From positions 4,650,001 through 4,714,000 of the forward strand of contig NZ_CP109592.1 of the NCBI RefSeq assembly GCF_036250675.1: a DNA stretch of 64,000 bases. The letters are read 5' to 3'. This DNA comes from Streptomyces sp. NBC_01689 (lineage in GTDB: Bacteria; Actinomycetota; Actinomycetes; Streptomycetales; Streptomycetaceae). Both the position numbers and the translations under genes were made by a program. The notes beneath the pieces are model-generated. The model was not told where the DNA came from. It did no database searches and was given only the letters and a program-made list of their open reading frames with translations. Positions 3,774-22,889 of this stretch are shown here, piece by piece. Numbering within the stretch: the stretch's first letter is position 1; each line of letters begins with the position of its first letter.

Positions 3774-6557
3774 TCAGCGCGAGGTGGTGAGAGCCCGGAT
3801 CGTGGGCGCCCGGTAGAGGTCGCGCAGCGGCGGGGAGGGCAGGCCGCGGGCGCGCAGGGCGGCGCCGATGCGGACCGCGAACAGGGAGTTCCCGCCGAGT
3901 TCGAAGAAGTCGTCGTCGAGGCCCACGGGGGTGCCGAGGACCGTCTCCCAGATCTCCAGGAGCGCGGTGGTGAGACCGGTGTCACCCTCGCCGTCGCGGC
4001 GCTCGGGGGCGGCGCCCGGTCCGGAAGGCCCGGAAGGTCCCGGTCCGGGCCGTGCGGGCGCCGCCGCGCGGGCCGGGGCGGGCAGCCGTGCCGGATCGAG
4101 TTTGCCGTTGGTGGTCAGCGGGAGGGCGTCGAGAGCGGTGACCGTGGCCGGGACCATGTGCTCGGGCAGGATGCCGGCGGCACGCCGTCGGACGCCGTGC
4201 GGGTCGGGGGCGCAGCCGCCGTCGGACGGCACCACGTAGGCGTCGAGTCGGGCCGCGGCCGGATCGGCGGGGTCGTCACGGCGCACCACGACGGCCGCGG
4301 CGGCGACGGCCGGGTCCTCCAGGAGCACGGAGCGGATCTCGTCGAGTTCGATGCGGAAGCCCCGGATCTTGACCTGGCTGTCGATCCGGCCGAGGTGTTC
4401 CAGTCTCCCGTCGGGACGCAGCCGTCCCAGGTCTCCGCTGCGGTACATCCGCGCCGACGGCTCGTGGACGTAGGGGTCGGGAACGAAGCGCCGGGCGGTC
4501 AGCTCGGGCCGGTCGAGGTAGCCGGCGGCGACGCCCGCGCCGCCCACGCAGATCTCGCCGGTGACGCCCGGGGGCACGAGACGGCCCCGTTCGTCGGTGA
4601 CGTACAGGTGCCAGCCCGGCAGGGCGGGGCCCACGGACCGGGAGCCGGCGAGGGCGAGCGCGCGGGTCACGGTCTGCGCGGTGACGTGCACGGTCGTCTC
4701 GGTGATGCCGAACATGTTGACCGCGCGGCAGGTGCTCTCGGGGTGCCGGTCGAACCAGGGCAGCAGCATGCGGCTGTCCAGGGGCTCGCCGCCGAACACG
4801 ACGAGCCGGACCGGCAGCGGTGCGTGGTCGGCCTGGAGGAGCTGGGAGAACGCGGACGGGGTCTGGCTGAGCACGGTGACCCGGCGGGCGAGGAGCAGGT
4901 CGCGGAAGTCGTCCGGGTCGCGGGCGACGAAGTACGGCACGACGACGAGGCGTCCGCCGGTCAGCAGGCAGCCCCAGATCTCCCAGACGGAGAAGTCGAA
5001 GGCGGCCGAGTGGAAGAGCGTCCAGGTGTCGTCGGCGCCGAGCCGGTACTCGTCCCGGGTGGCGTCGATCAGGGAGACGACGTTGCGGTGCGGTACGAGC
5101 ACGCCCTTGGGCCGGCCGGTGGAACCGGAGGTGTAGATGACGTACGCCGGATCGTCGGGGGCCGCGGCGGGGAGGCCGGCCGGGTCGGCGGGAGCGGTGT
5201 CGGCGAGTTCGTCGGGGGTGAGCGGCAGGACCCCGCCGTCGCGGGGGAACGTGTCGAGCCGGGTCACCACGAGACGCAGCCCCGCGTCGGTCACGGTGTG
5301 CGCGAGGCGGTCGGCGGGGTAGGCCGGGTCGGTGGGGACGTACGCGGCTCCGGCCCTGACCACGGCGAGCAGGGTGACGACCAGTTCGGCGGTGCGTTCG
5401 AGGCAGACGCCCACGCGGTCGCCGCGGCGCACTCCGCGGGCCCACAGCCCCGCCGCGACGCGGGCCGAGCGCTCGTCCAGTTCCCGGTAGGTGAGTTCCG
5501 TTTCGCCGTCGCAGAGGGCCACGGCGTCGGGCGTGGCGGCCGCCACCCGCGCGAACGCCTCGGGCAGCGTGCGTGGTTCGGACGCGAGGGTGGTGCCGGG
5601 CCGCCCGACCCGCGCCACCCGTCGCCGCTCCTCGTCGTCCAGCAGTTCCACGTCCGCGACGGCGGTCTCCGGTGCGAGCGCCGACTGCCGGTACACGTGG
5701 CCGAGATGCCGGGTGAACCCCTCGGCCACCTCCGTCGAGACATGGCTGAGCCGGAAGAAGCAGGAGAGCCGGGTGCCGCCGCCGGGCAGGGGTGAGAAGG
5801 CGAAGGTGAGGGGGAAGGGCGGGGCGAGGCAGGGCAGCCACTCCCGCGGCCCGGCGCGGTCCGGGGCGGGCGCCGGGTCCTCCGGCGGCGGTCCGGGCAC
5901 GCCTTCCGTGTCCTCGGCGACGCCCGCGAGCACGCCCCGGGGCACCGTCGCCGGTGCCGCGCCGGCCAGCTCCGCCAGGGTGGCCGTCGGGGGCACCGCG
6001 TACTCCAGCGCTCCCGCGCGGTCGCCTGCGACCGTCGCCGTACCGGTCGCGCCGTGGCCGTCGTAGCGGGCGAGGGTCACCGCCAGCGCGGGCAGACGGA
6101 GTGCGGCGGGAGTGGTGGCGTACGGGACGGGCAGGTCCAGGTGGTGCACGCCCTGCCCCGTGGCGGCCGGATCACCGCGGCCCCACTCCGGGGCGGCGGC
6201 CGGCGGCGGGCAGGCCCGGCGCGCGGCGGGCGGCGGGCAGGGCGACGGCGGGCGCTCCCCGGTCAGCACCTCCGTCAGACGGCGCAGGCCGGGCCCGTCC
6301 AGACAGGTCCGGTGCGCCACGACGACGAGGTCCGCCGTGCCGTCGGCGTAGCCGAGGCGGACGCACCGCACGCCCCCGGTCAGTGGACGCCTCAGTTCCG
6401 CCTCGCGACGGCGTACGGCGAGCGGGTCGTCCGGCGCGGCCGGCACGTCGTCCGGCCACAGCCGCCAGGGGCCGGCGGCGCTCAGCCGGGCCTCCAGTCG
6501 CCGCGCGTCGAGCCCGGTCACCGCGACGCGGACCGCATGGCACTCTGCACCCAGCAC
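3774..6557 (-). CDS. Stand-alone NRPS: degenerate C - A (Thr-like) - T
   Basis: A 927-residue synthetase, last gene of the minus-strand cluster operon. Residues 1-330 look like a shortened condensation domain: the active motif HHxxxDG is replaced by AHRTCLDG (81-88) and proline/alanine-rich stretches interrupt it, so it is probably inactive. The adenylation domain (about 331-830) has YTSGSTGRPKGV, FDFSVWEIWG, NMFGITETTVHVT, YRSGDLGR and NGKLD. Hand alignment to GrsA gives the specificity code DFWSVGMVHK, close to known threonine codes. A thiolation domain follows (DDDFFELGGNSL). There is no thioesterase or epimerase. The GTG at 6557 is preceded by GGGAGGG six bases upstream; a longer upstream frame is spurious. 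It probably loads Thr on its own carrier for tailoring or for trans transfer to the A-less carriers of the other NRPS proteins. No MbtH protein was found nearby. Confidence 0.88.
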   Translation of the reverse strand: MLGAECHAVRVAVTGLDARRLEARLSAAGPWRLWPDDVPAAPDDPLAVRRREAELRRPLTGGVRCVRLGYADGTADLVVVAHRTCLDGPGLRRLTEVLTGERPPSPCPPPAARRACPPPAAAPEWGRGDPAATGQGVHHLDLPVPYATTPAALRLPALAVTLARYDGHGATGTATVAGDRAGALEYAVPPTATLAELAGAAPATVPRGVLAGVAEDTEGVPGPPPEDPAPAPDRAGPREWLPCLAPPFPLTFAFSPLPGGGTRLSCFFRLSHVSTEVAEGFTRHLGHVYRQSALAPETAVADVELLDDEERRRVARVGRPGTTLASEPRTLPEAFARVAAATPDAVALCDGETELTYRELDERSARVAAGLWARGVRRGDRVGVCLERTAELVVTLLAVVRAGAAYVPTDPAYPADRLAHTVTDAGLRLVVTRLDTFPRDGGVLPLTPDELADTAPADPAGLPAAAPDDPAYVIYTSGSTGRPKGVLVPHRNVVSLIDATRDEYRLGADDTWTLFHSAAFDFSVWEIWGCLLTGGRLVVVPYFVARDPDDFRDLLLARRVTVLSQTPSAFSQLLQADHAPLPVRLVVFGGEPLDSRMLLPWFDRHPESTCRAVNMFGITETTVHVTAQTVTRALALAGSRSVGPALPGWHLYVTDERGRLVPPGVTGEICVGGAGVAAGYLDRPELTARRFVPDPYVHEPSARMYRSGDLGRLRPDGRLEHLGRIDSQVKIRGFRIELDEIRSVLLEDPAVAAAAVVVRRDDPADPAAARLDAYVVPSDGGCAPDPHGVRRRAAGILPEHMVPATVTALDALPLTTNGKLDPARLPAPARAAAPARPGPGPSGPSGPGAAPERRDGEGDTGLTTALLEIWETVLGTPVGLDDDFFELGGNSLFAVRIGAALRARGLPSPPLRDLYRAPTIRALTTSR

Positions 6558-6790
6558 GGGTGTCCCTCCCCTGTTCCGGCCGTCCGGCCCTGTCTGGTCC
6601 TGCCTGCTCGTCCTGGCCCGCATGGGCCCGCGTGGGCCTGCCTGGTCCTGTCCGGGCGCCCGGGTCCGCCACGCCCCGCCCGGCCGGGCGCTCCGCCTCA
6701 CCCCGCCGTACGGGCCCGCCCGGCCGGCCGCGATCGGACACGGCGGGTCGGCACCCGGTAACCGGTACGGCCAGACGTCCGCGGAGGTGC
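6558..6790. other. 233-bp spacer inside the NRPS operon with degenerate repeats
   Basis: Between the SDR and the C-A-T NRPS lies the longest gap of an otherwise tightly packed operon. It holds imperfect repeats built on TGGTCCTGCCTG, TGGCCCGCATGG and GGGCCTGCC (about 6580-6660). No gene is seen; it may be a remnant of a lost coding stretch or carry a secondary promoter for the last gene. Confidence 0.5.
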
Positions 6791-7615
6791 TCAGCGGGCC
6801 GTGAACCCGCCGTCCACGGTCAGCGTCGACCCCGTCACCTGCCGGGCGTCGTCCGACAGCAGGTAGACCACCGCCGACGCCACGTCCTCCGGCTCGATCA
6901 GGGCGTTCATCGGCTGCGCCGCGACGAACGTCTCCTCGTGCTCGCTCACCGGCACGTCGAGGGCCCGCGCGATCTCGGCGAGCATGCGGCCCTCGGCGGT
7001 CGCGGTGTCCCGGACCGAGCCGGGACAGACGGCGTTGACCCGCACCTTCCTGGGCGCGTAGTCGAGCGCCGCCGCCTTGGTGAGTCCGATCAGCCCGTGT
7101 TTCGCGGCGACGTACCCGGCGAAGTGCCGGTAGCCCACCAGGCCCGCCGTGGAGGCGATGTTGACGATGCTGCCCGAGCGGCGGGCGCTCATCGCCTTGC
7201 CGACGGTACGGATCATCCGCCACGCCCCGGAGAGGTCGACGTCGATCATCAGCGCCCACTCCTCCTCGCCGATCTCGTGCGCGGGCCGGCCCGAGGGCGC
7301 CGCGATCCCCGCGTTGTTGACCACACCGTCGAGCGGGCCGAAGCGGTCCTCGGCGAGCGCGACGGCCTCCTCGACGGAACGCAGGTCGCGCACGTCGCAG
7401 CGGGCCGTCAGCACCGCTGCCCCGGACGCGCGGCACAGCGCCGCGGTGTGCTCCAGCTGGCTCGTGGTGCCCAGCGGATACGGCACCCCCGGCAGGTCCT
7501 CGCAGAGGTCGAACAGCGCCAGGTCGGCGCCCTCGGCCGCGCAGGCGGCGGCCGTGGCCCGGCCCAGGCCGCGGGACGCCCCGGTGACGACGACCACCTT
7601 CCCCGTCAAGCGCAT
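6791..7615 (-). CDS. Short-chain dehydrogenase/reductase of the mycofactocin-associated type
   Basis: A 274-residue SDR. It has the cofactor motif TGASRGLG (11-18), NNAG (100-103), catalytic Ser155 (NIASTAG) and the Tyr168-x3-Lys172 pair (GYVAAKHG). After the second beta strand it carries the insertion DLPGVPYPLGTTSQLEHT (about 40-57), a hallmark of SDRs that hold NAD tightly and pass electrons to mycofactocin in mycobacteria. It lies between the type II thioesterase and the Thr-type C-A-T NRPS, so an obvious substrate is a hydroxyl or ketone on a carrier-bound amino acid (for example the Thr beta-hydroxyl), or the beta-ketone made by the PKS. No mycofactocin genes are in the window, so it may use NAD(P)H normally. 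Confidence 0.88.
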   Translation of the reverse strand: MRLTGKVVVVTGASRGLGRATAAACAAEGADLALFDLCEDLPGVPYPLGTTSQLEHTAALCRASGAAVLTARCDVRDLRSVEEAVALAEDRFGPLDGVVNNAGIAAPSGRPAHEIGEEEWALMIDVDLSGAWRMIRTVGKAMSARRSGSIVNIASTAGLVGYRHFAGYVAAKHGLIGLTKAAALDYAPRKVRVNAVCPGSVRDTATAEGRMLAEIARALDVPVSEHEETFVAAQPMNALIEPEDVASAVVYLLSDDARQVTGSTLTVDGGFTAR

Positions 7616-7649
7616 GACTCGCTCCCCCCTTCTCCGGGCCGTTCCCGGC

Positions 7650-8417
7650 TCAGCCGAGACCCAGATCGGCGCGGACGACGGCGAGCAGCGCCCCCGCGGA
7701 CCCGGTCAGATACATGTGGCCGCCGGGCAGTTCGACGGTGCGGAAGTCCCCGCCCGCGGTCTTGGCCCAGGCGGCCGCCTCGTCCCGCCGGACCAGTTCG
7801 TCGTGGCTGCCGCGCAGCACGGTGAGCGGTACGGGCAGCGCCAGGTCGGTGGAAGGCGCGTAGCTCTCGTGCATCTCCACGTCGGCGCGGAGCGTGGGCA
7901 GGATCAGCTCGCGCATCTCCGGGTCGTCGAGCGCCTCGTGGGTGTAGCCGGCGAACTCGTTGACCCGGGCGAGGAACGCGTCGTCGGGCAGACCGGTGGC
8001 GCGGCGGGTCCGCTGTTCCGCGGGGTGCGGGGAGCCGCTGACGAAGAGGTGTACGAGGTCGGTCCCGTCCGGTTCCGCGGCCAGCCGGTGGGCCAGTTCG
8101 TAGGCGAGGACGGCACCCAGGCTGTGGCCGAACAGGGCGATCCTGCGGGGCTGTCCGGGGTCCGCGCCGAGTGCGGCGCGCAGGTCGCCGAGCAGTCCGT
8201 CGGTGGCCGTGCGGGCGTCCGTGTACGGGTCCTCGTCGATCCGGCGTTCACGGCCGGGAAGGCCGAGCGGCAGGATCGTGAGGTGTTCGCCCGCCATGCG
8301 CTGCCAGGGCCGGAAGAAGGAGGCGCCCGCTCCCGCGAAGGGCAGGCAGACCAGGGTCGTGGTGGTGCCGGCGGCCGTCGCCCCGGTGCTCCCGTCCCGT
8401 GTCGTGGTCGTCGTCAT
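7650..8417 (-). CDS. Type II thioesterase (editing or release) of the NRPS-PKS cluster
   Basis: A 255-residue alpha/beta hydrolase of the GrsT/RifR kind. Ser99 lies in GHSLG (97-101), and the catalytic His is in GGHMYL near residue 233, with an Asp in the loop before it (GSHDE). Such enzymes hydrolyse wrong acyl groups from carrier-protein arms, and in some pathways release a tailored amino acid from a dedicated carrier. The N-terminus is Thr/Ala rich. It starts one base after the P450 stop and ends 34 bp before the SDR, so it is part of the P450-TE-SDR-NRPS set. A second enzyme of the same type is encoded at 22896-23672. Confidence 0.9.
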   Translation of the reverse strand: MTTTTTRDGSTGATAAGTTTTLVCLPFAGAGASFFRPWQRMAGEHLTILPLGLPGRERRIDEDPYTDARTATDGLLGDLRAALGADPGQPRRIALFGHSLGAVLAYELAHRLAAEPDGTDLVHLFVSGSPHPAEQRTRRATGLPDDAFLARVNEFAGYTHEALDDPEMRELILPTLRADVEMHESYAPSTDLALPVPLTVLRGSHDELVRRDEAAAWAKTAGGDFRTVELPGGHMYLTGSAGALLAVVRADLGLG

Positions 8418-8418
8418 C

Positions 8419-9774
8419 TCAGTGCGCCTCCTGCGCGTCGGCGGCGAGCCGGGCCTCGTAGCGCACCGGCAGCTTCTTCAGGCCGCGGCTGGTGGAGTTG
8501 TCGAAGACCCACTCCAACCGGTCGTGCGGGACCGCGAGTTCGAGCCCGGCGAGGCGGCGCAGCAGGGTCGGGAAGGCGACCTGGCCCTCGACGCGGGAGA
8601 GCGGGGCGCCGACGCAGAAGTGCGCGCCCTGGCCGAAGGCGAGGTGGCGGTTGGCGTCGCGGGTGATGTCGAGGCGGTCCGGGTCCTCGAAGGCCTCCGG
8701 GTCCCGGTTCGCGGCGTCCATGAGGATGTGGACGAAGCTCTCGCGGGGTATGGGGCAGCCGCCCAGCTCCATGTCCTCGGTGGCCACCCGGAGGGTGCCC
8801 CGGTAGACGGGCGGCTCGAAGCGCAGGAACTCCTCGACCGCCGACTCCACCAACTCCGGTTTTGAGGAGAGGAGTTCGAACTGGTCGGGGTGGCTGAACA
8901 GTGCCTGCATGCCGTTGCCTATGAGGTTCGCGGTGGTCTTGTGACCGGCGATGATCAGCAGGACGAGGGTGGAGACCAGCTCGTCGTTGGTGAAGACGTC
9001 CTCCTCGTCGGCGGCCCGCAGCAGGAGGGAGACCAGGTCCTCGCCGACCCCCTCGGCGCGGCGCCGGTCGAGCAGCCCGACGAGGTACCTCTCGATGCTG
9101 TCGCTGGCCTCCTTCAGCCTGCGGTTGGACTCCTCGTCCGCGAACGGCGCGCCGCTCAGCCAGTACCCCCAGGCGTGCAGCTCGGGACGGTCCTCGATCG
9201 GGACGCCGAGGAACTCGCAGATGACCCGCATGGGCAGGGTGAAGGCGAACTCCATCAGGTCGATCTCGCCCGACTCGGGGAGCGCGTCGATGAGTTCGTC
9301 GGTGATCTCCTGGATGCGCGGGCGCAGCAGCGCCATCCGGCGCGGTACGAAGGCGCGGCTGACCAGGCGGCGGAGCCGGGTGTGATCGGGCGCGTCCGCG
9401 GTGATCATGTTGCGGATGAGGACCGGGCTGCTGTCCTTGAGCAGGTCGCGGAACCACGCGGGCGCGTTGTCGACGGACTTGGACAGCCGGGGGTCGGCGA
9501 ACCCCTTGAGCGCGGTCTCGTAGTCGGAGACCACGTAGGCCTCGCCGCCGGGCGGGTAGTTGATGGGGTGCACGGGGCAGCCGGTCGCGCGCAGCCGGGC
9601 GTTGGCGGCGTGGGTGGCGCCGGCCGCCGGATCGGGATCGGTGAAGAACTCCGGCGGCAGCCGGTCCCCGTCGCCCGTCGCCGCGGCCAGGGCCGTGACG
9701 GCGGGGTCCGCCGGGGCGGGCGCGGCGGGGCGGGCGGTGGCGGAAGTCTGCCGTGCGGTGTCGGCGGCCATCAC
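8419..9774 (-). CDS. Cytochrome P450 (cluster P450 A)
   Basis: A 451-residue soluble bacterial P450. The I-helix motif is IIAGHKTTANLI, where the usual acidic residue before Thr-Thr is Lys; the ExxR motif is present (EEFLR); and the haem loop is FGQGAHFCVGAPLSR with Cys near residue 387. It needs a ferredoxin and reductase encoded elsewhere. It begins with ATGA overlap to the MFS gene and is followed by the thioesterase one base later. The order P450, thioesterase, SDR, A-T resembles cassettes that hydroxylate or oxidise a carrier-bound amino acid (as in novobiocin or nikkomycin pathways), but substrate and position of oxidation cannot be told from sequence. Confidence 0.92.
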   Translation of the reverse strand: MMAADTARQTSATARPAAPAPADPAVTALAAATGDGDRLPPEFFTDPDPAAGATHAANARLRATGCPVHPINYPPGGEAYVVSDYETALKGFADPRLSKSVDNAPAWFRDLLKDSSPVLIRNMITADAPDHTRLRRLVSRAFVPRRMALLRPRIQEITDELIDALPESGEIDLMEFAFTLPMRVICEFLGVPIEDRPELHAWGYWLSGAPFADEESNRRLKEASDSIERYLVGLLDRRRAEGVGEDLVSLLLRAADEEDVFTNDELVSTLVLLIIAGHKTTANLIGNGMQALFSHPDQFELLSSKPELVESAVEEFLRFEPPVYRGTLRVATEDMELGGCPIPRESFVHILMDAANRDPEAFEDPDRLDITRDANRHLAFGQGAHFCVGAPLSRVEGQVAFPTLLRRLAGLELAVPHDRLEWVFDNSTSRGLKKLPVRYEARLAADAQEAH

Positions 9775-11138
9775 GTCTCCTTGGAGGTCGGGTCCCCGGA
9801 CGGGTCCGCCGTGGCGACGGCGTACTCCTCCGGCGGGGCGAGCTTGCGGATACGGGGGCTGAGCGTGGGCAGGGCGGCCAGGCCCGAGGCGATGGCCATG
9901 GCCGTGAACACCCAGGTGGACCCGGCCAGGTCGAAGAGGGCGCCGACGCCGAACACGCCGATCGGGGCGGCGATCATCGACATGAACATCACGGCGCCGA
10001 GCACCCGGCCCTGCACCTTGTCCGGTGCCATGGCCGCCAGGTACGCGAGGAACAGCGCGCTGGTGATCGGCCCGCGCAGGAAGACGCAGGCGACGATGAT
10101 GCCGAGCGGGACGAGCCCGGAGACGTTCGCGAGCAGCACGGCGGCGACCGGGCCGATCCAGGCGGCGGTGAGGAACAGCACCGGCGGCTTCACCCGCTTG
10201 ATGATCGGGCTCGCGAGGAGCGAGCCGACCACACCGCCGATCCCGGCGATCGACAGGAGCAGGCCGGTGAAGGCGGGTGAGGCGCCCCGGCTCTCGGCGG
10301 TGGCGATCAGCGCGAGGAAGACGCCGGAGTGGGTGAACGCCATGTTCGAGCCCATGATCCAGATGATCAGCAGGCGCAGTACGGGCTGGCGGGCCAGGAA
10401 ACGGAAACCCTCGGCGGCGTTGCGCTTCTCGCCGGGCGCCGCGTTCTCCACCTTCAGCGGCTTGCGGATGAACAGCAGCAGCACGGAGGAGACCAGGAAG
10501 GCGAGGGCCGCGCTCAGGAAGGGGAAGGCGCGCGCGACGGCGAACAGCGAGCCGCCGGCGGGCGGTCCGCCCATGGTCGCCGCGAAGTAGCGGACCTGGT
10601 TCTGCGCGGTGGCCTGGGTCAGCTGCGAGGGCGGGACCAGCTGCTTGATGACCGCGAGGCCGGTCGGGTTGGAGATGCCGAGGCAGACGGCCGAGCCGAC
10701 GGCGACGGTGAAGATGACCGCCGGGTCGGTGTGCCCGGTGGAGATGAGCAGCGCGAACAGGCCGAGCAGCACGACCCGGACCATGTTGCAGACGATGAGC
10801 AGCAGCCGTCGGTCGACCCGGTCGGCGAGGGTGCCGCCGGGTATCGACATCACGCTGGCGGCGACCAGTTGGGCGGAGCCGACGGCACCGGCGTAGAACG
10901 CGCTGCCGTGGGTGGCGAGGATCAGCAGCGGATAGGCGACCTCGGCGGTCTCCTTGGCGAGCGCGGCGAACGCCTCACTGGTCCACAGTGCCTGGAAGTC
11001 GCCGTTGCGCAGGAGGGGTTTGGGCTCCTCGGGGCGCGCCGGTGCCGGTTCGGTGGCCGTACCGACCGCCTCGCTCACCGGAGACGCTCCCGGCCCCGCC
11101 ACCAGATCCGTGTCGGGTGGATTCTCCGCCATGGTCAT
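9771..11138 (-). CDS. MFS transporter, probable product exporter
   Basis: A 455-residue membrane protein with about a dozen hydrophobic segments and the MFS loop signature GGTLADRVDRRLLL between helices 2 and 3. The first 45 residues are a Pro/Ala-rich cytoplasmic tail. It resembles the EntS/MFS_3 group of drug and siderophore exporters. It sits in the middle of the NRPS-PKS operon, overlapping the PKS stop by 4 bp at its start and the P450 start at its end, so export of, and self-resistance to, the cluster product is the natural role. The start ATG at 11138 has a purine-rich stretch upstream (AACGAGAAAGGGA). Confidence 0.9.
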   Translation of the reverse strand: MTMAENPPDTDLVAGPGASPVSEAVGTATEPAPARPEEPKPLLRNGDFQALWTSEAFAALAKETAEVAYPLLILATHGSAFYAGAVGSAQLVAASVMSIPGGTLADRVDRRLLLIVCNMVRVVLLGLFALLISTGHTDPAVIFTVAVGSAVCLGISNPTGLAVIKQLVPPSQLTQATAQNQVRYFAATMGGPPAGGSLFAVARAFPFLSAALAFLVSSVLLLFIRKPLKVENAAPGEKRNAAEGFRFLARQPVLRLLIIWIMGSNMAFTHSGVFLALIATAESRGASPAFTGLLLSIAGIGGVVGSLLASPIIKRVKPPVLFLTAAWIGPVAAVLLANVSGLVPLGIIVACVFLRGPITSALFLAYLAAMAPDKVQGRVLGAVMFMSMIAAPIGVFGVGALFDLAGSTWVFTAMAIASGLAALPTLSPRIRKLAPPEEYAVATADPSGDPTSKET

Positions 11139-14100
11139 TCCCTTTCTCGTTCCTGTCGAACAGTGCGGCCGTCTCCCCGGGGGCGCGACGCGTCGACCGC
11201 GTCCAGCACGTCGAGGAGCCTGCTCGCCAGTGGCCGCGCGTGGGGGGAGGCGAGCATGGACCAGTGGTCACCGGGGACGGACTCGACGCGCAGCCCGCCC
11301 GCGTAGAGGCCGGTCGGGCGGGCGCGCGGTCGGTCCGTGCCGGTGGGCCCGCCGGTGTCCGCCGGCCCGCCGGACGCCTTGAAGAGGACAGCGGGGCAGG
11401 GCAGCGGCGACGGCCGGTAGCGCAGCAGCCCTGCCTGGCGGGACGTGAACCGCCGCCGCAGCGCCGGGTCCCGGCGCAGCCGCCGGGCGAGCGGGCCGGC
11501 ACCGAGGGCCGCCTCGGCCTGGGCCCGCAGGCCGGCGCGCAGGAACTCGGGGGCGACGCCGACCGGCAGTCCCCCGGTGTCGGGCACGAATCCGTCCAGG
11601 CACACGAGCAGGTCGACGCGCTCGCCGCGCCGGGTCAGCAGCCGGGCCAGCTCGTGGGCGACGACCGCGCCGTAGGACCAGCCGCCGAGCGTGTACGGGC
11701 CTTCGGGCTGCGCCCTCAGCAGTGCCCCGAGGCGGGCCGCGGCCACGGCGCCGACCGTGCGGGGGGTGCCCCGGGCGTCGTCCACGTCCTCCAGCGCGAG
11801 CACCGGTCTGCCGCCCGCGGCACCCAGTTCGTCGCCGAGTTCCCGGTAGGGCAGCGCGTTGCCGACCGCGTCGCTGACGAGGAACAGCGGCCGCCGCCCC
11901 GGGCGCCCCTCGGCGAGGGTCGCCAGGCCGGGGACCGGCGGCGGCGCACCGCCGGATTCCGGCAGCCCGCCGGTCACGGCTTCCACCAGGTCCCCGAAGG
12001 CGGGACGCCGTGAGAAGTCGGTGACGGACAGCGCGCACCCGGTGCGCTCCCTGACCGCGGACGTCAGGGTGACGGCCATCAGGGACTCGCCGCCCAGGGC
12101 GAAGAAGTCGTCGTCGTCGCGGGCGGCGGCCACACCGAGCGTGCGGCACCACAGCTCTTCGAGCACGGCCCGGACGTCCGCGGGCCCGAGGACGCCGCGG
12201 GGCGCGGTGCGTGCCGGTGCCGGCGGGCTCGGCCGTGCGGGGCTCGGGTCACCGGCCGGGAGACCGCGCGGGTCCCGGTCCGCGGGGAGCTCCCGCGGGT
12301 CCTCGCCCAGGAACCGGTAGCCGGGCAGTGAGCAGCGCGCGGTCCCCTCCCCGGCGGGCTCCAGCACATCGAGGACGGCACGGTCGGCGCCTCGTTCCCA
12401 CAGCGTGCCGAGCGCCGTCAGAAGGGCGTCGTCGGCGGGTTCCGCCGGCCGGCCGGTCAGCCGTACGGCGGTGAACGCGGCGTCCCAGCCGGGGCTGCGG
12501 CGCAGTCCGCCGAGCATCGAGCTGCCCGGGCCCAGTTCGACGAAGGTCGTGCAGCCCGAGGCCAGCAGTGTCTCCATGGCGCGGGCGAGCAGTACGGGGC
12601 TGCGCAGCTGGGTGGCCCAGTAGCCGGGGCGCGCCACCTGCGCGGGGTCCGCCCACTCGCCGGTGGCGTTGGAGACGAGCGGCAGCCGAGGCGGGCGCGC
12701 GGGCACCGACGACAGGGACGCGCGCACCTCCTCGGCTGCCCGTTCCATGGCCTTCGAGTGGAAGGCGCGCCGGGTGTGCACCGGCGTGATCGGCAGGCCC
12801 GCCAGCGCGTCGCCCGACAGGAGGTCCGCGACGGCCGCCTCGGGTCCGGACAGGACGACGGTTCCGGGGCCCTCGACGGCGACGCCGACCTCGCCGCCCG
12901 CGGGCAGCCGTGCGGTGACCTCGCGGACGTCGGCGGCCACACTCACCATACGGCCGGGTTCGGTGTCCCACATGGCGCGGGCCCGGCGGCACACCAGACC
13001 GGCGGCGTCCTGGGGCGACCAGACCCCGGCGACGGCGGCGGCCGCGTACTCGCCGACGCTGTTGCCGAGCAGCGCGGCGGGCCGCACGCGCCAGTCCCTG
13101 AGCTGGCTGCCGAAGGCGTATCCGAGGGCGAACAGGGCGAGTTGCTGGTGCACGGTGTCGGCGAACCAGTCCTCGGACGCGCCGTCCTTCTCGTCGACGA
13201 CGGGGCTCAGGTCGATCGCGTGGCCGTCGAGGACGGTCTCGCGGATCATGTCGAACGCCGCCCGGAACCCGGGGAGCCGGCGGTGGGCCGCGGCACCCGC
13301 GGCGTGCCGCAGGGTGCCCTGCCCCGGGAAGACGAAGGCGACCTTGCCGAGCCCGCGCGGCCCGGCGAGGGCCTCCCCGGCACCTTCCCGCTCGGCCCGC
13401 TCGGCGAGCGCGCGCAGCGACCGGGCGGCCTGTTCCGTGTCGTGCGCCACGACGGCCGCCCGGTGACGGTGGACACGCCGCCCGGCGAGCGTGCGGGAGA
13501 CCTCGGCCAGCGGCGGCGCGGGCCGCTCCGCGGTGAGGTGGTCGGCGAGCGCCCGGGCCATCCGGCCGAGCGCCTCGGGCCCGGCGGCGGACACCAGCAA
13601 CGGCCGTGGGCCGCCGCGGTCCGGGAGCGGGGCGCGGCGGGGCGCGGACTCCAGGAGCACGTGGGCGTTGGTGCCGCCGACTCCGAAGGAGCTGACGGCG
13701 GCGACCCGGGGCCCGTCGCCCCGGCGGGGCTCCCAAGGCTCGCAGCGCCCGACGATCCGGAACGGTGAACTGTCCAGTTCCAGGAGGGGGTTGGGCCGGG
13801 TGAAGTGGGCCGTGGGCACGAGCAGGCCGCGTTCCAGCATCAGCGCGGTCTTGATCAGCCCGGCGACACCGGAGGCGACACCGGTGTGCCCGATGTTCCC
13901 CTTCACGGCGCCGAGCGCGCACCGGTCCCGGGCCGACGCGGAGCCCCCGAAGACGTCGGCGAGCGCCTGTACCTCCACCGGGTCGCCGAGCCGGGTCGCG
14001 GTGCCGTGCGCCTCGACATGGTCGACGTCGGCCGGGTCCACCCCGGCGACGCGCTGTGCGGCGCGGATCACCTCGCTCTGCCCGGTCAGGGACGGTGCGG

Positions 14101-14941
14101 TGTACGCCATCTTGTCGGAGCCGTCGTTGTTGACGGCGGTACCGGTGATCACGGCGGCGATCCGGTCGCCGTCGCGCAGGGCGTCCGCCAGCCGCTTGAG
14201 CACGACGACGGCGACGCCCTCGCTGGGCACGGTGCCCGCCGCGTCCTCGTCGAAGGGCCGGCAGCGGCCGTCGGGCGAGAGGATGCCGCCCGGCTCGTGG
14301 AGATAGCCCCACTCCCCGTCGGGCATGACGGTGACGCCGCCGGCGAGGGCCGCGTCGCACTCGCCGCCGACGAGGGCGCGGACCGCGAGATGAGTGGCGG
14401 TCAGCGAGGTGGAGCAGGCGGTCTGCACGGTGAGCGCGGGGCCGCGCAGCCCCAGCTTGTAGGCCGCGCGGGTGGCGAGGAAGTCCTTCTCCTGCCCGAT
14501 GTAGCGCGCGAGTTCGCCGATGTCGTCCTGGCCGGGACCGGAGCGGGTGCCGACCCGGTCGGCGCCCGCGTAGACCCCGATCCGGCCCCGGAAGCGGGTC
14601 GGGTCGAGTCCCGCGTCGTCGAACGCGGTGACCGCGCACTCCAGGAACACCCGCTGCTGCGGGTCCGTCGCGGCGGCCTCGGCCCGGCTGTAGCCGAAGT
14701 ACGCCCGGTCGAAGCGGCGCGATCCGGCGATGACGCCCATGGCCGGGACGAAGTTCTCCCGGCGTACGTAGTCCGGGTCGGCGCCCAGGGCGACGAGCCG
14801 CTCGGGATCGAAGCGGCTGATGCCGTCCCGGCCCGCCGTCAGCGCCGCCCAGTATTGGTCCAGGTCGTCGGCCCCGGGCAGCCTGCAGGCCATGCCCACG
14901 ACGGCCACGGCACCGTCCGCGCGATCCCCTGCGCTCGGCAC
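11135..14941 (-). CDS. Type I PKS module KS-AT-ACP-TE (chain-terminating)
   Basis: A 1268-residue single-module polyketide synthase. The ketosynthase (about 10-430) has the complete triad: Cys in TACSTSL, His in HGTATRLGDP and His in NIGHTGVASG. The acyltransferase (about 500-830) has GNSVGEY in place of the usual GHSVGE and RAFHS where malonyl-specific enzymes have HAFHS, so malonyl-CoA is the likely extender. A carrier domain follows (DDDFFALGGESL, about 955) and then a thioesterase (GWSYG, catalytic His in GDHWSML). There is no KR, DH, ER or methyltransferase, so the unit adds two carbons and leaves a beta-ketone, and the TE then hydrolyses or cyclises. It starts at GTG 14941, one base after the P450 stop, and overlaps the MFS gene. 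It probably accepts the peptidyl chain from the T-C-A-T NRPS. Confidence 0.92.
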   Translation of the reverse strand: MPSAGDRADGAVAVVGMACRLPGADDLDQYWAALTAGRDGISRFDPERLVALGADPDYVRRENFVPAMGVIAGSRRFDRAYFGYSRAEAAATDPQQRVFLECAVTAFDDAGLDPTRFRGRIGVYAGADRVGTRSGPGQDDIGELARYIGQEKDFLATRAAYKLGLRGPALTVQTACSTSLTATHLAVRALVGGECDAALAGGVTVMPDGEWGYLHEPGGILSPDGRCRPFDEDAAGTVPSEGVAVVVLKRLADALRDGDRIAAVITGTAVNNDGSDKMAYTAPSLTGQSEVIRAAQRVAGVDPADVDHVEAHGTATRLGDPVEVQALADVFGGSASARDRCALGAVKGNIGHTGVASGVAGLIKTALMLERGLLVPTAHFTRPNPLLELDSSPFRIVGRCEPWEPRRGDGPRVAAVSSFGVGGTNAHVLLESAPRRAPLPDRGGPRPLLVSAAGPEALGRMARALADHLTAERPAPPLAEVSRTLAGRRVHRHRAAVVAHDTEQAARSLRALAERAEREGAGEALAGPRGLGKVAFVFPGQGTLRHAAGAAAHRRLPGFRAAFDMIRETVLDGHAIDLSPVVDEKDGASEDWFADTVHQQLALFALGYAFGSQLRDWRVRPAALLGNSVGEYAAAAVAGVWSPQDAAGLVCRRARAMWDTEPGRMVSVAADVREVTARLPAGGEVGVAVEGPGTVVLSGPEAAVADLLSGDALAGLPITPVHTRRAFHSKAMERAAEEVRASLSSVPARPPRLPLVSNATGEWADPAQVARPGYWATQLRSPVLLARAMETLLASGCTTFVELGPGSSMLGGLRRSPGWDAAFTAVRLTGRPAEPADDALLTALGTLWERGADRAVLDVLEPAGEGTARCSLPGYRFLGEDPRELPADRDPRGLPAGDPSPARPSPPAPARTAPRGVLGPADVRAVLEELWCRTLGVAAARDDDDFFALGGESLMAVTLTSAVRERTGCALSVTDFSRRPAFGDLVEAVTGGLPESGGAPPPVPGLATLAEGRPGRRPLFLVSDAVGNALPYRELGDELGAAGGRPVLALEDVDDARGTPRTVGAVAAARLGALLRAQPEGPYTLGGWSYGAVVAHELARLLTRRGERVDLLVCLDGFVPDTGGLPVGVAPEFLRAGLRAQAEAALGAGPLARRLRRDPALRRRFTSRQAGLLRYRPSPLPCPAVLFKASGGPADTGGPTGTDRPRARPTGLYAGGLRVESVPGDHWSMLASPHARPLASRLLDVLDAVDASRPRGDGRTVRQERERE

Positions 14942-14942
14942 G

Positions 14943-16069
14943 TCACACCCCCAGGTCGACGTAGAGGTGGTCGAGGCCCACGTACGAGAGGTTGGGGCCC
15001 CACTCCGGGGCCTCGCCGGCGAGCCGCGCGTCCGGGAAGCGCGCGGCGAACCTGCGCAGCAGCACGGCCGCCTCCAGCCGCGCGAGCGGTGCGCCGACGC
15101 AGTAGTGCGGCCCGAATCCGAAGACGAGGTGCTGCTCGGACCCGCCGGTGTCGTCCGTCGCGCCGGTGACCGGACAGGCCGCGGGCGGGCCGGCCGGTGC
15201 GGCGGGGTCGGCGAGCGGGTTCTCGCCGGTGAGGCTGACGAGGACGAGGTCGCCCCGCGTCATCCGTTCCCCGGCGAGTTCCTGGTCGTGGGCGACGACC
15301 CGGCCCAGGTGCCGCAGCGGCGGGCGGCGTTGCAGCACCCTCTCCACGAACTCCTCGGCGGCACCCGGGCGTTGTTCGCGTACGGCGTCCCAGACCGGTG
15401 GTTCGCCCAGGACGTCCAGGACCGTCGAGGCCAGCAGCGACGAGGTCGTCTCCAGCCCGCCGAAGAGGTTCATCGCCCAGGTCGCGGCGGTGCGCGCCCG
15501 GTCCTCGGGGCTCTCCTGCGGGAAGGCCTTCGGTGCGGTGGCCCGGGACAGCGCCTCGGTCATCTCCACCATGGTGCGGTGGGCGTGCTCGGCGTGGTCC
15601 CGGCGGTACATCGCGCCGATGAACAGCGACAGGGTGCGTGCCCAGCGGTGCAGCACCTCGGGCGGTTCGGCGACGCCGACGACGTGGGCCATCACCTTGC
15701 CGGAGATCCCGTCGGCGACGGCGGGCACGATGTCGTGCGGCGTGCCCGCGGCCAGCGCGTCGAGGCACTCCTCGGTGAACTCCTCGACCCGCGGGGCGAG
15801 GGAGCGCACGTACGAGGCGGACATCACGCGCTGCACCGGGCGGCGCAGTGCCGTGTGCTCGGGAGCGTCGGCCTGCACGAACCACAGCCTCAGGAACTCG
15901 GTGAGCTCCCGGTACTCCTCGCGCGCGGCCTCGGTCATGTAGAGCTGGAAGGAGCGCTCGAAGGTCCCGGAGGTGAAGCCGGGATGGTTGAGGACCTGCC
16001 GGGCGAGTCGCGGATCGGCGACGACCCAGCATTCGAGGCCCTCGTCCCACGCGAGCGGGGGCGTACCGT

Positions 16070-16073
<4 letters not shown>
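14943..16073 (-). CDS. Cytochrome P450 without an ExxR motif (cluster P450 B)
   Basis: A 376-residue P450-fold protein, short at the N-terminus. The haem loop is normal (FGFGPHYCVGAPLAR, Cys near 325) and the I-helix reads NLFGGLETTSSLL. The K-helix, where nearly all P450s have ExxR, reads EEFVERVLQRRPPL: aligned on the PP that follows, the Glu and Arg positions are Arg and Gln. The start is a GTG at 16073 overlapping the NRPS stop (GTGA), which supports the short N-terminus. The missing motif could mean a modified core, a non-oxidative role, or an enzyme on a carrier-bound substrate. The gene sits between the NRPS and PKS genes, so the intermediate passing between them is a candidate substrate. 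Confidence 0.9.
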
Positions 16074-19578
<3,505 letters not shown>

Positions 19579-19579
<1 letters not shown>

Positions 19580-21174
19580 CAGACGGCCCCGGCGGGGGCC
19601 GTGAGCAGTTCGGCCTGGCCGCTGACGGTGGTGGAGCGGAACAGGTCGACGGTGCGCAGGGCCCGCCCGGAGGCCTGGCTGAGGCGCTCGACCAGGACCA
19701 CGAGGAGCAGCGAGTCGCCGCCCGACTCGAAGAAACTGACGTCGTCGTCGACGTCGTCGGTGCCCAGTACCTCGCGCCAGAGGGTCCGTACGAGTTCGAG
19801 CCGCTCCTCGGGGTCGTCCAGGTCGATCGTCTCGACGGGCTGTTCGAGCACGGGTTCCTCCGGTGAAGTGGCCATGTCCGCGGCGCTGCGCCGCAGATCC
19901 GTCAGGAGTACGGAGAGGGCGGAGTGGTCGGTGACGTCCGTCGGGTAGTCGAGGGACAGCTCCAGCTGCCGGCCGTCGGCGGCGTCGACGGTCCGGACGA
20001 ACGCGGCGAGGTCGTACTTGACGTAGAGCGGGTCGAGCGGGCGGAGCCGGCCGGTGACGCCGGGGGCGAGTTCCGGGGTGTGGGGCGCGTCGTCGAGGTT
20101 GAGCAGGACCGGGGTGAGCGGCGGCCAGAGCCGGGTCCGGTCGGGGTTGAGCCGCGCGGCGAGCGCGTCCAGCGGTACGTCGGCGTCCATGAACGCCTCC
20201 ATGCTGCCGAGCCGGGCGGCACGCAGCAGTTCCCGCCAGCTGGTGTCCGTCTCCAGGGAGACGCGCAGCACCACCGTGGTGATGAACATGCCGATGACGT
20301 CGGCCGCGTCCGGGTGGTCGCGGCCCGGCCAGGCGAAGGCGATGAGGAAGTCCCGCTGGCCGCTGCCGCGGGCGAGTGTGCCCGCGAGCAGCGCGACGCC
20401 GAGCATGAAGGTGGTGCAGCCCTCCTCGGCGGCCACCGCCAGGGCCTTCGCGGTGTGTTCCGGATCGAGCCGGCCGGTGACGGTGGCGCCCAGCCGGGCG
20501 GCCTCCAGGTCGTCGCCGGCGCCGCGCTCGAAGGGCAGACGCACGTCGACGGGGGCCCCGCGCAGACGCTCGACGACCTCGTCGACCTGCGCGGTCACCT
20601 CTTCGGGAGCGCGGTCGGCGACGACCGAGGCGGGGTGGGGCGGGCTGCTCAGTTCCGGCTCCGTGCCGGCGAGCCCGGCCCGGTAGACGGTGAAGATCTC
20701 CTCCAGGAGCATCGTGCGCGACAGCCCGTCGACCACGATGTGGTGCGAGACGAGGACCAGCAGGGTGCGGCGGCTGTCGAGCCGGACGACGACGGCCCGG
20801 GCCGGGGCGTCGACGGCCAGGTCGAACGGGGTGCCGCACAGCTCCCGCACGAACGCGTCGACCTCGGACTCCGTGAGCCCCTCGGCCTCGGCGTCCCGGA
20901 ACACGGCCGTGCCGGGCTCGCCGTGGGTCGCGTACTCGACCCGGCGGCGCTTGGTGTCGTACCGGAAACGGGCCCGGAGCGAAGGGTGCCGGGCGATGGT
21001 CAGCCGGGCGGCGTCGAGGAGCCGCTCGTGGTGCACCTCGCCGGTGAACTCCACCACGGACGGGACGAGCTGGGTGGGTCTCTGGAGTTCGTCACGATCG
21101 AGGACCCACAGGCCCTGTTGCATCCGGGTGGCCGGATACCACAGAGCCTCTTCTAACGACGAATCGGACAGCAC
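19579..21174 (-). CDS. NRPS C-T, first gene of the operon, with a TTA codon
   Basis: A 531-residue protein with a condensation domain (about 15-430; intact SHHIVVDG at 143-150) and a carrier domain (FFESGGDSLLL, Ser near 488), but no adenylation domain. As the first protein of the line it may be a starter condensation domain joining an acyl group to an amino acid, or it may take an aminoacyl group from the stand-alone C-A-T protein. Its carrier must be charged in trans. The start is GTG (21174-21172) behind GGGGGA. Codon 7 is TTA (21156-21154), the rare leucine codon read in Streptomyces by the bldA tRNA, so translation of the whole coupled operon may depend on bldA. It ends inside the ATG of the next NRPS gene. 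Confidence 0.9.
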
Positions 21175-21611: not shown

Positions 21612-22889
21612 TTGAAAGTCCATGACGCCGCGACACCCAGCGCTGCAATTCCCGGATGCCCCGTGCACCGGGGAACGACGACGGATCTCGTCGACCCCAG
21701 GCTGTACAGCGGCGGCGACGCGCACGCCGTGTGGCGGGAGATGCGGAAACAGGACACCCTGACGCGCCAGGAGGTGGACGAGAAGCCCGGGTTCTGGAAC
21801 ATCGTCGGATTCGACGACGCGGAACAGGTCCTGCGCGACACCGAGGCCTTCACCTCGGAACGCGGCACCATGCTCGACCTCCTCGGCACCGACGACCCCG
21901 CGGGCGGCAAGCAGCTGGCCGTCACCGACCCCCCGCGCCACACCGAGATGCAGACGCGTCTGAAAAAGGCCCTCGCGGTGAAGGCCGTCGAGCGGCAGAA
22001 GGACATGATCAGGCCATTGGTGGTCGACCTGATCTCACCGCTCGGGGACGGCGGAACCTTCGACTTCGCCGAGGCCATGCTGGCGATGCCGATGTCCGTG
22101 ACGGGCACGATGATGGGTCTGCCCGAGGCGGACTGGCCCTGGCTCAGCCGCCTGACGACCATCTGCATCGCCGCGGACGACCCGGAGTACCAGGACCCGG
22201 GAGGCAAGGCCGCCACCCTGGAACGCGCGCACCGCGACCTGTTCGCCTACTTCCAGGACCTGATGCGCTTCCGCCGTCAGAACCTCGGCGACGACCTGCT
22301 GAGCGTCCTGATCTCCACCGAGTTCGAGGGCCGCCACATGGACCCCGGCGAGATCGTGGCGAACTGCTACAGCCTGCTGCTCGGCGCGAACGTCACCACC
22401 CCGCACTCCCCCAACTACGTGATGGCGGAGTTCATCGACAAGGGCGTGCTGGAGGACTGGGCCGCGCACCCGGAGGTCAACACCACGGCCACCGAGGAGG
22501 CGCTGCGCTGGGCCTCGCCCGTCAACCACTTCCTGCGCTACGCGACCCGTGACGTGACGGTCAGGAACACCGAGGTCGCCGCGGGCGACGCGGTGGTCGT
22601 CTGGCTCGGTTCGGCCAACCGCGACGAGGCCGCCTTCACCGACGCGGGGACCTTCGACATCCGCCGCCGGCCCAACAAGCACGTGGCCTTCGGCATCGGC
22701 CCGCACTACTGCATCGGTCACAGCGTCGCCCGGATCACCCTGCGCATCCTCTTCGAGGAACTCCTCACCCGCTTCGAGGACTTCAGACCGGCCGGCCGGC
22801 CCGAGCGCCTCGCCTCGAACTTCGTCTCCGGCTGGAAGCACGTGCCCATCACGGCACGGCCGCGCGCCGGCGCCCCCGGGGCCGGGTGA
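21612..22889 (+). CDS. Cytochrome P450 (cluster P450 C)
   Basis: A P450 of 425 residues counted from a TTG start at 21612 (MKVHDAATPSAAIPGCPVHRG), which has GAAAGGA a short distance upstream. A longer open frame upstream runs through the promoter region and has no P450 similarity. ExxR is present (TEEALRW) and the haem loop is FGIGPHYCIGHSVAR (Cys near 367). The I-helix reads LLLGANVTTPHS, so the usual acidic residue before Thr is Val. It is the first gene of the divergent arm of the cluster and is followed 6 bp later by a type II thioesterase, repeating the P450-thioesterase pairing seen on the other strand. Confidence 0.9.
   Translation: MKVHDAATPSAAIPGCPVHRGTTTDLVDPRLYSGGDAHAVWREMRKQDTLTRQEVDEKPGFWNIVGFDDAEQVLRDTEAFTSERGTMLDLLGTDDPAGGKQLAVTDPPRHTEMQTRLKKALAVKAVERQKDMIRPLVVDLISPLGDGGTFDFAEAMLAMPMSVTGTMMGLPEADWPWLSRLTTICIAADDPEYQDPGGKAATLERAHRDLFAYFQDLMRFRRQNLGDDLLSVLISTEFEGRHMDPGEIVANCYSLLLGANVTTPHSPNYVMAEFIDKGVLEDWAAHPEVNTTATEEALRWASPVNHFLRYATRDVTVRNTEVAAGDAVVVWLGSANRDEAAFTDAGTFDIRRRPNKHVAFGIGPHYCIGHSVARITLRILFEELLTRFEDFRPAGRPERLASNFVSGWKHVPITARPRAGAPGAG

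What the first reader, a model, noticed from the sequence alone, without database searches (positions are those of the whole stretch)
3774..21174. Hybrid NRPS-PKS operon with unusual division of domains
Seen: four megasynthase genes in one tightly coupled operon encode C-T, T-C-A-T, KS-AT-ACP-TE and a detached degenerate-C-A-T. Two carriers (end of the first protein, start of the second) have no adenylation domain, and the only spare A domain is in the detached protein. Inference: that A domain, Thr-like by its code, may load carriers in trans, and the Val-like unit is extended by malonate and released by the TE, giving an acyl/peptidyl-Val beta-keto acid, methyl ketone, tetramate or, after reduction, a statine-like unit. 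I cannot match this order to a characterised pathway.
Basis: partly seen in the sequence, partly recalled or inferred. Interest (0 to 1): 0.78.

Follow-up and report, generated by a model that had tools for sequence, protein, structure and literature searches.

The report
Trans-loaded threonine in hybrid peptide-polyketide cluster
A Streptomyces gene cluster for an unknown small peptide-polyketide appears to use a known three-gene kit that prepares threonine (probably as allo-threonine) on a separate carrier protein and hands it to carrier domains that cannot load themselves, so the odd division of labour is real but has precedents.

Summary
Observation confirmed. Four megasynthases lie in one minus-strand operon: C-T, T-C-A(Val)-T, KS-AT-ACP-TE and degenerate-C-A(Thr)-T. 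The cluster has 12 genes (3774-24708), including a divergent P450-TEII-AKR arm; of seven orthologous loci found, five keep all 12 in the same order. The missed feature is that the detached A-T closes a TEII-SDR-A-T trio. Of 11 other loci with this A-T type that I read, 8 have the full trio, and 4 of those show an A-less C-T nearby. One has the gene content of the rotihibin cluster; its SDR, TEII and A-T are 80, 65 and 60% identical to the window's. This is the cassette described for globomycin, WS9326A and rotihibin: Thr is loaded on the A-T, thought to be inverted to L-allo-Thr by the SDR, and moved by the TEII to an A-less carrier. In-trans loading is therefore well supported and not new in kind. 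Its combination with a split C-T/T-C-A-T and a one-round terminal PKS matched no pathway in the papers I saw. Product and module order are unresolved. Most novel open reading: a nine-membered lactone-lactam, an aza-relative of antimycin. Interest moderate.

The parts
19579..21174 (-). CT: C1 (19849-21138) and T1 (19603-19794); A-less C-T didomain
   Evidence: Pfam; motifs 6 of 6; homologue list; domain coordinates
16070..19579 (-). TCAT: T2 (19364-19567), C2 (17975-19321), A with Val-like code (16469-17920), T3 (16091-16291)
   Evidence: Pfam; solved LgrA T-C-A-T 593 bits; code; start overlaps CT stop
14943..16073 (-). P450_a, unusual P450 without ExxR
   Evidence: Pfam; 97 of the 110 listed homologues aligned: ExxR in 0 of 97, haem Cys in 97 of 97
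11135..14941 (-). PKS: KS (13646-14911), AT (12497-13336), ACP (11975-12166), TE (11207-11893)
   Evidence: Pfam; catalytic residues 6 of 6
9771..11138 (-). MFS exporter
   Evidence: Pfam
8419..9771 (-). P450_b; best solved relative CxnD (423 bits, next 294)
7650..8417 (-). TEII_a, type II thioesterase of the RthD/GlobC kind, proposed Thr shuttle
   Evidence: Pfam; 65% to the TEII of the rotihibin-like locus; GHSLG 6 of 6
6791..7615 (-). SDR of the RthC/GlobD kind, proposed inversion of the Thr beta carbon
   Evidence: Pfam; 80% to the SDR of the rotihibin-like locus
3774..6623 (-). Detached A-T: degenerate C (5589-6545), A with Thr-like code (4101-5555), T4 (3786-3965)
   Evidence: Pfam; profile match; code; 60% to the A-T of the rotihibin-like locus
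21663..22889 (+). P450_c; solved relatives include 4l0e (recalled as P450sky) and 3mgx (recalled as OxyD)
   Evidence: Pfam; fusion of this P450 type with the CT-type C domain in P0112
22896..23672 (+). TEII_b, second type II thioesterase
   Evidence: Pfam; GHSMG
23722..24708 (+). AKR, aldo/keto reductase; last conserved gene of the divergent arm
   Evidence: Pfam; conserved with the cluster

Best explanation
This is an uncharacterised 12-gene NRPS-PKS cluster built around a known trans-loading cassette. Inferred steps: (1) the detached A-T activates L-Thr on T4; (2) the SDR inverts its beta-hydroxyl through a beta-keto intermediate, giving L-allo-Thr (a hypothesis of PMC9943842); (3) TEII_a moves the aminoacyl group to the A-less carrier(s), T1 and/or T2; (4) C1 joins it to an acyl or peptidyl donor and C2 to Val loaded in cis on T3; (5) KS-AT-ACP adds one malonyl unit; (6) the TE releases by hydrolysis or lactonisation; (7) P450_c probably acts on a carrier-bound residue at the C-T, and P450_a, P450_b and the AKR tailor further; (8) the MFS protein exports. 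Favoured order is the gene order, acyl - (allo)Thr - Val - malonyl, a split version of the C-T-C-A-T layout reported for LgnD and WS19. Shown by sequence: domains, catalytic residues, codes, cassette homology, conservation. Inferred: every chemical step, the allo configuration, the order and the product.
For: Intact domains and conserved codes. Conserved limits AKR to A-T, also where the flanking genes differ. N-extension of the A-T in 13 of 101 Streptomyces genomes, own included. Of 12 non-orthologous loci among these I read 11: SDR adjacent in 10, SDR and TEII in 8. An A-less C-T is visible in 4 of those 8 (G006, G086b, G019, G091), in G018 (SDR but no adjacent TEII), and as a split C//T-C-A-T in G080 (no SDR or TEII). 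The G091 locus has the rth gene content in order (A-T, SDR, TEII, luciferase-like, two ABC genes, AMP-binding, two acyl-CoA dehydrogenases, ACP, NRPS; against Table 1 of PMC8552735 seen); identities to the window SDR 80%, TEII 65%, A-T 60%. Passages: inactivation of rthB abolishes rotihibin (PMC8552735); deletion of endD abolishes enduracidin (PMC13320435); LgnA moves Thr between T domains in vitro (PMC8748450). P0112 fuses a P450_c homologue (70%) to a CT-type C domain (51%).
Against: C1 is outside the clade that holds the first C domain of the rotihibin-like NRPS and groups (100/100) with the C of C-T units that follow an A-T and directly precede a KS protein in three distant clusters; that favours TCAT, then CT, then PKS. 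No acyl-activating gene is among the 12. Globomycin has the cassette but no A-less module (PMC9943842), so the cassette alone does not prove in-trans loading. In 4 of 8 full-trio loci, and in 5 of all 11, no A-less unit was seen in the stretch read; I counted no control set of NRPS loci without the cassette. The G080 C domain has no HHxxxDG match. In PMC10956176 transfer from a WS23-like A-T did not need the local TEII.
Confidence: 0.72

Rival explanations
1. Same cassette, other order: T2 carries the starter, C2 adds Val, then C1-T1 adds trans-loaded (allo)Thr, and the PKS extends Thr, giving X-Val-Thr-malonyl; the Thr hydroxyl could then close a six-membered pyran-2,4-dione.
For: C1 groups 100/100 with the C of C-T units of G366, G086 and G173, which follow an A-T and are followed at once by a KS protein. 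In two cassette loci the A-less unit is the last one, C-T-TE (G006, G086b).
Against: Gene order and overlap put CT before TCAT. T-C-A-T with its own N-terminal T behind a separate C also occurs in G080. 19 of 120 listed CT homologues have no T domain by Pfam (21 by motif), some perhaps fragments, and the four partner PKSs that I paired by equal contig length and printed begin with KS, so there the residue must sit on another carrier.
Confidence: 0.35
2. The A-T is only a tailoring platform: TEII_a hydrolyses the modified amino acid, which is then activated as a free acid elsewhere.
For: Proposed as an alternative for GlobC (PMC9943842).
Against: The only other A domain of the cluster has a Val code and two carriers lack any A domain; several homologous cassettes occur with A-less units.
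Confidence: 0.12
3. The Val A domain loads T1 and/or T2 as well, giving a Val-Val unit, by the kind of iterative loading proposed for pepstatin.
For: Pepstatin proposal of one A domain loading several carriers, with a Thr-predicted stand-alone A thought to load Val (PMC12081711).
Against: The detached A-T carries a Thr-type code identical at the read positions to that of the G006 cassette and a conserved SDR that needs a hydroxyl substrate if the published hypothesis holds.
Confidence: 0.08
4. The cluster is decayed and makes nothing.
For: Relatives G290 and G224 look broken; in G290 the five genes from MFS to A-T were not found.
Against: The reading frames and catalytic residues examined are intact in the window and 5 orthologues.
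Confidence: 0.03

Closest known systems
Rotihibin rthB-rthC-rthD with the A-less module 2 of RthA (PMC8552735, passages)
   Same: A-T, SDR, TEII adjacent; Thr code; A-less C-T partner; 60/80/65% identity to the corresponding genes of a locus with rth gene content
   Different: Rotihibin is a lipopeptide made by a pentamodular NRPS ending in a reductase; Table 1 lists no PKS and no P450
Globomycin globC-globD-globE (PMC9943842, passages)
   Same: Same gene trio; source of the SDR inversion hypothesis
   Different: All globomycin NRPS modules have A domains; its polyketide part uses a ketoreductase
WS9326A WS20/WS21/WS22 with WS19 C-T-C-A-T (as described in PMC8748450, PMC9943842, PMC13320435; original paper not read)
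   Same: Trans A-T, TEII shuttle, A-less C-T before C-A-T
   Different: Window splits the unit over two proteins, has an extra T, and ends in a PKS
Legonmycin/legonindolizidine LgnA-LgnB-LgnD (PMC8748450, passages)
   Same: TEII moves Thr from a separate A-T to the T1 of C1-T1-C2; C1 uses isovaleryl-CoA
   Different: No SDR or PKS in the passages read; LgnA is reported under 30% identical to RthD
Coralinone CorA A-T-C-A-T-KS-AT-ACP-TE (PMC10979478, passages)
   Same: Peptidyl unit extended once by malonate and released by TE
   Different: One protein, no trans A-T, no extra C-T
Antimycin AntC/AntD (PMC3869250, passages)
   Same: Thr module, second module, then KS-AT-ACP-TE; discrete ketoreductase; TE lactonises
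   Different: A domain for Thr in cis; pyruvate with KR in place of Val; 3-aminosalicylate starter genes absent here
Pepstatin pep cluster (PMC12081711, two sections)
   Same: Discrete NRPS and KS-AT-ACP parts, stand-alone Thr-predicted A domain
   Different: No F420-dependent reductase, C-PCP-C or stand-alone PCP here

Membership tests
TEII-SDR-A-T (allo-)Thr trans-loading cassette | Three genes adjacent on one strand | tested here: met
   7650-8417, 6791-7615, 3774-6623, all minus; same in the 5 orthologous loci that keep all 12 genes
TEII-SDR-A-T (allo-)Thr trans-loading cassette | A-T with Thr-type code and N-terminal extension of about 300 aa | tested here: met
   an extension of that length is described for ramoplanin/enduracidin A-T in PMC8949500, not compared by sequence
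TEII-SDR-A-T (allo-)Thr trans-loading cassette | Sequence kinship with a published cassette | tested here: met
   80, 65, 60% to a locus whose genes match rth Table 1; the accessioned S. scabies sequence itself was not compared
TEII-SDR-A-T (allo-)Thr trans-loading cassette | A-less carrier partner in the same cluster | tested here: met
   T1 and T2 have no A domain
TEII-SDR-A-T (allo-)Thr trans-loading cassette | Aminoacyl transfer by the TEII; allo-Thr in the product | not testable with these tools
   Needs biochemistry
LgnD/WS19-type C-T-C-A-T unit | A-less C-T followed by C-A-T in one protein | tested here: not met
   Split in two proteins with an extra T; similar logic remains possible
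Antimycin-type | KS-AT-ACP-TE terminal module | tested here: met
   sequence kinship with AntD not tested
Antimycin-type | Pyruvate A-KR module and 3-aminosalicylate starter genes | tested here: not met
   No such genes among the 12
Pepstatin-type statine pathway | F420-dependent oxidoreductase (PepI) in the cluster | tested here: not met
   No luciferase-like (PF00296) match among the 12 cluster genes
Coralinone-type pyrazinone pathway | Dipeptide with free amine extended once by malonate | tested here: inconclusive
   Domains would allow it only if C1 is not used for acylation
Acyl-initiation (starter) C domain for C1 | Groups with acyl-initiating C domains | tested here: not met
   Outside the 100/100 clade that holds the first C of the rotihibin-like NRPS; few labelled references, deep forks open

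The most novel reading that the evidence does not exclude
The assembly line makes acyl-(allo)Thr-Val-malonyl and the TE closes the Thr oxygen onto the malonyl carbonyl, giving a nine-membered lactone-lactam: a lactam relative of the antimycin dilactone whose Thr is delivered in trans, with a carrier-bound residue oxidised by P450_c and the ketone reduced by the AKR.
Probability: 0.13. Interest if true: 0.65.

Novelty: new variant of a known kind. Interest (0 to 1): 0.42.

Why it matters
It turns an apparently broken assembly line into a readable one, and shows the TEII-SDR-A-T trio recurring beside diverse Streptomyces NRPS genes. It offers a compact system in which the origin of L-allo-Thr, called unresolved in PMC9943842, could be tested with three small genes. 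The N-terminal extension of these A-T proteins, of a length described in PMC8949500 as without substantial homology for ramoplanin and enduracidin, appears in this family to be a degenerate condensation domain, which would give its reported role in trans-complementation a structural starting point.

Tried and rejected
Pepstatin-type logic was my first lead and failed for lack of the F420 reductase. Detoxin/rimosamide kinship was considered from memory; only the listing was seen and no domain comparison was made. Mycofactocin dependence of the SDR: it scores 285 bits against a cut-off of 300 for the mycofactocin-coupled SDR model, but the genome has no MftC match over the cut-off, so I dropped it. 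A single-sequence structure model of the N-extension was unusable (mean pLDDT 40.4) and no fold search was made. The ACP-TE search was meant to find antimycin-like relatives; I identified no AntD, so TE kinship is untested. The first profile test of the N-extension was negative and was superseded by a broader one. Plasmid records gave no close relative of CT or PKS (all under 60% identity). Paper searches were made; no described cluster with this gene order appeared in their listings or in the passages read, but no search was made by producer strain, most subscription papers are missing, and MIBiG/antiSMASH were not available.
Full report
Anatomy. The minus-strand operon reads, in order of transcription, CT (21174-19579), TCAT (19579-16070), P450_a (16073-14943), PKS (14941-11135), MFS (11138-9771), P450_b (9771-8419), TEII_a (8417-7650), SDR (7615-6791) and the detached A-T (6623-3774); divergently on the plus strand lie P450_c, TEII_b and AKR to 24708. 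Downstream lie a DUF2520 protein, panC and a flavoprotein. Catalytic motifs are conserved in the window and 5 orthologues.

Cluster limits. A scan of 84,980 species genomes with the CT protein gave 4 loci (records of the window's own genome may be left out). A sample of 392 Streptomyces genomes gave 8 at E 1e-100 or better: 5, own included, with 64-100% identity and 3 distant ones with 43-45%. G072 is the same contig as L004 by length. Of the 7 distinct orthologous loci, 5 keep all 12 genes in the same order (in G293 the AKR is cut by the fetched edge), G224 shows matches to all 12 but several genes in broken pieces, and in G290 the five genes from MFS to A-T were not found and TCAT and PKS have gaps. 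In L001 and L002 the flanking genes are those of the window; in L003 and L004, whose flanks were partly read, none of them matched, which sets the limits at AKR and A-T.

Wider family. The CT search returned 123 proteins at E 1e-60 or better (120 listed), among them Streptomyces, Kitasatospora, Amycolatopsis, Saccharothrix, Lentzea and Kibdelosporangium. P450_a and the PKS have similarly spread homologues. Matching by equal contig length, an indirect test on truncated lists, pairs 36 of 114 CT entries with a PKS entry, 15 with a P450_a entry and 10 with both.

The decisive comparison. The N-terminal extension of the detached A-T was found in 13 of 101 Streptomyces genomes, own included. Apart from the window and its orthologue G072 these hold 12 loci; I read 11 (G039, a short match, was not fetched). 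An SDR lies beside the extension-bearing gene in 10 of 11, and a TEII as well in 8. Exceptions: G080 has neither; G018 has no adjacent TEII; G088 has no TEII and its frame shows the extension without an A domain; in G086b the TEII is split over two frames. Identities to the window where aligned are 56-80% for the SDR (10 loci), 49-65% for the adjacent TEII (8) and 46-60% for the A-T (10). An A-less unit is visible in 6 of 11: C-T-TE in G006 and G086b, C-T at the start of an NRPS in G018 and G019, C-T-C in G091, and a separate C, without a HHxxxDG match, before T-C-A-T in G080. Counting full trios only, it is 4 of 8. In the other 5 loci none was seen; several NRPS genes run off the fetched stretch, and G088 shows no NRPS. 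I made no control count on loci without the cassette. G006 shows no KS in the 26 kb annotated, so its SDR does not serve a PKS there.

What the cassette is. The G091 locus carries, in order, A-T, SDR, TEII, luciferase-like oxidoreductase, two ABC genes, an AMP-binding protein, two acyl-CoA dehydrogenases, an ACP and an NRPS with an A-less C-T as second condensing module: the gene content of Table 1 of the rotihibin paper (PMC8552735). There RthB is proposed to supply Thr to the A-less module with RthD as shuttle, and inactivation of rthB abolishes rotihibin. The globomycin paper (PMC9943842) relates globD/globE to HmtG/HmtF and WS21/WS22 and proposes oxidation and re-reduction of the Thr hydroxyl to give L-allo-Thr; globC is the TEII. 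The enduracidin paper (PMC13320435) reports loss of product on deletion of endD. LgnA was shown in vitro to move Thr between T domains (PMC8748450). The Thr-like code of the window is listed among Thr codes in PMC12283262, apparently for gamma-chloro-Thr.

Order of modules. For the gene order: overlap of CT and TCAT, the LgnD and WS19 layouts, the G080 split C//T-C-A-T, and CT relatives without T (19 of 120 by Pfam; 21 by motif; some may be fragments). For the reverse order: three distant clusters in which a homologous C-T follows an A-T and directly precedes a KS protein. G366 was read in full as C-A-T-C-T; G173 looks alike, and in G086 the first C is a separate frame. The C-domain tree also favours it: C1 stands with those C domains and apart from the clade of the rotihibin-like first C domain. 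I give the gene order about 0.6.

Tailoring. P450_c resembles 4l0e (237 bits) and 3mgx (191 bits), which I recall as P450sky and OxyD, hydroxylases of carrier-bound amino acids; those labels come from memory, and an ancestral CYP125 scores as high (238 bits). A natural protein, P0112, joins a P450_c homologue (70%) to a CT-type C domain (51%), so the two probably meet on one substrate. P450_b is closest to CxnD. The AKR is distant from its best solved relative (117 bits). No MbtH gene was found in the cluster; three matches lie elsewhere in the genome.

Verdict. What is unmatched in the papers I could search is its use with a split C-T/T-C-A-T unit, three P450s and a terminal one-round PKS. 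The product is unknown. The most novel reading that survives is a nine-membered lactone-lactam: the Thr oxygen, two malonyl carbons, the former Val carbonyl carbon, the Val alpha carbon, the Val nitrogen, and the Thr carbonyl, alpha and beta carbons make nine ring atoms, the size of the antimycin dilactone (PMC3869250).

Noticed in passing
14943-16073 (P450_a): P450 family without the ExxR motif: in 97 aligned of 110 listed homologues the Glu is absent in all 97 and the Arg present in 6, while the haem Cys (97 of 97) and a GGLETT I-helix motif are kept.
   Followed up: partly
21663-22889 (P450_c): The I-helix reads GANVTT, lacking the usual acidic residue before Thr (usual motif recalled); the fused relative P0112 has the same letters.
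   Followed up: no
P0081 (homologue of CT): A 792-aa protein fuses a C-T didomain to LuxR/sigma-70 region 4-type DNA-binding domains.
   Followed up: no
3774-6623, N-terminal 345 aa: The extension of this family of stand-alone Thr A-T proteins is a degenerate condensation domain by profile comparison.
   Followed up: yes
L034-L035 (G290): Partly lost copy of the cluster: TCAT with an internal gap, PKS truncated, MFS to A-T not found.
   Followed up: partly
L036-L041 (G366, G086, G173): Three related clusters; G366 reads A-T, C-A-T-C-T, KS-carrier protein, stand-alone A domain. MFS, luciferase-like and discrete acyltransferase-like neighbours were judged from their first residues only; function unknown.
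   Followed up: partly
G000:C1 near 247-249 kb and 9.660-9.662 Mb: Equal-scoring C-domain and MbtH matches on opposite strands at these two places suggest an NRPS gene in inverted terminal repeats.
   Followed up: no
1751-3669: panC and a DUF2520 protein flank the cluster in the window and in L042 and L043; pantothenate supply next to a carrier-rich cluster may be coincidence.
   Followed up: no
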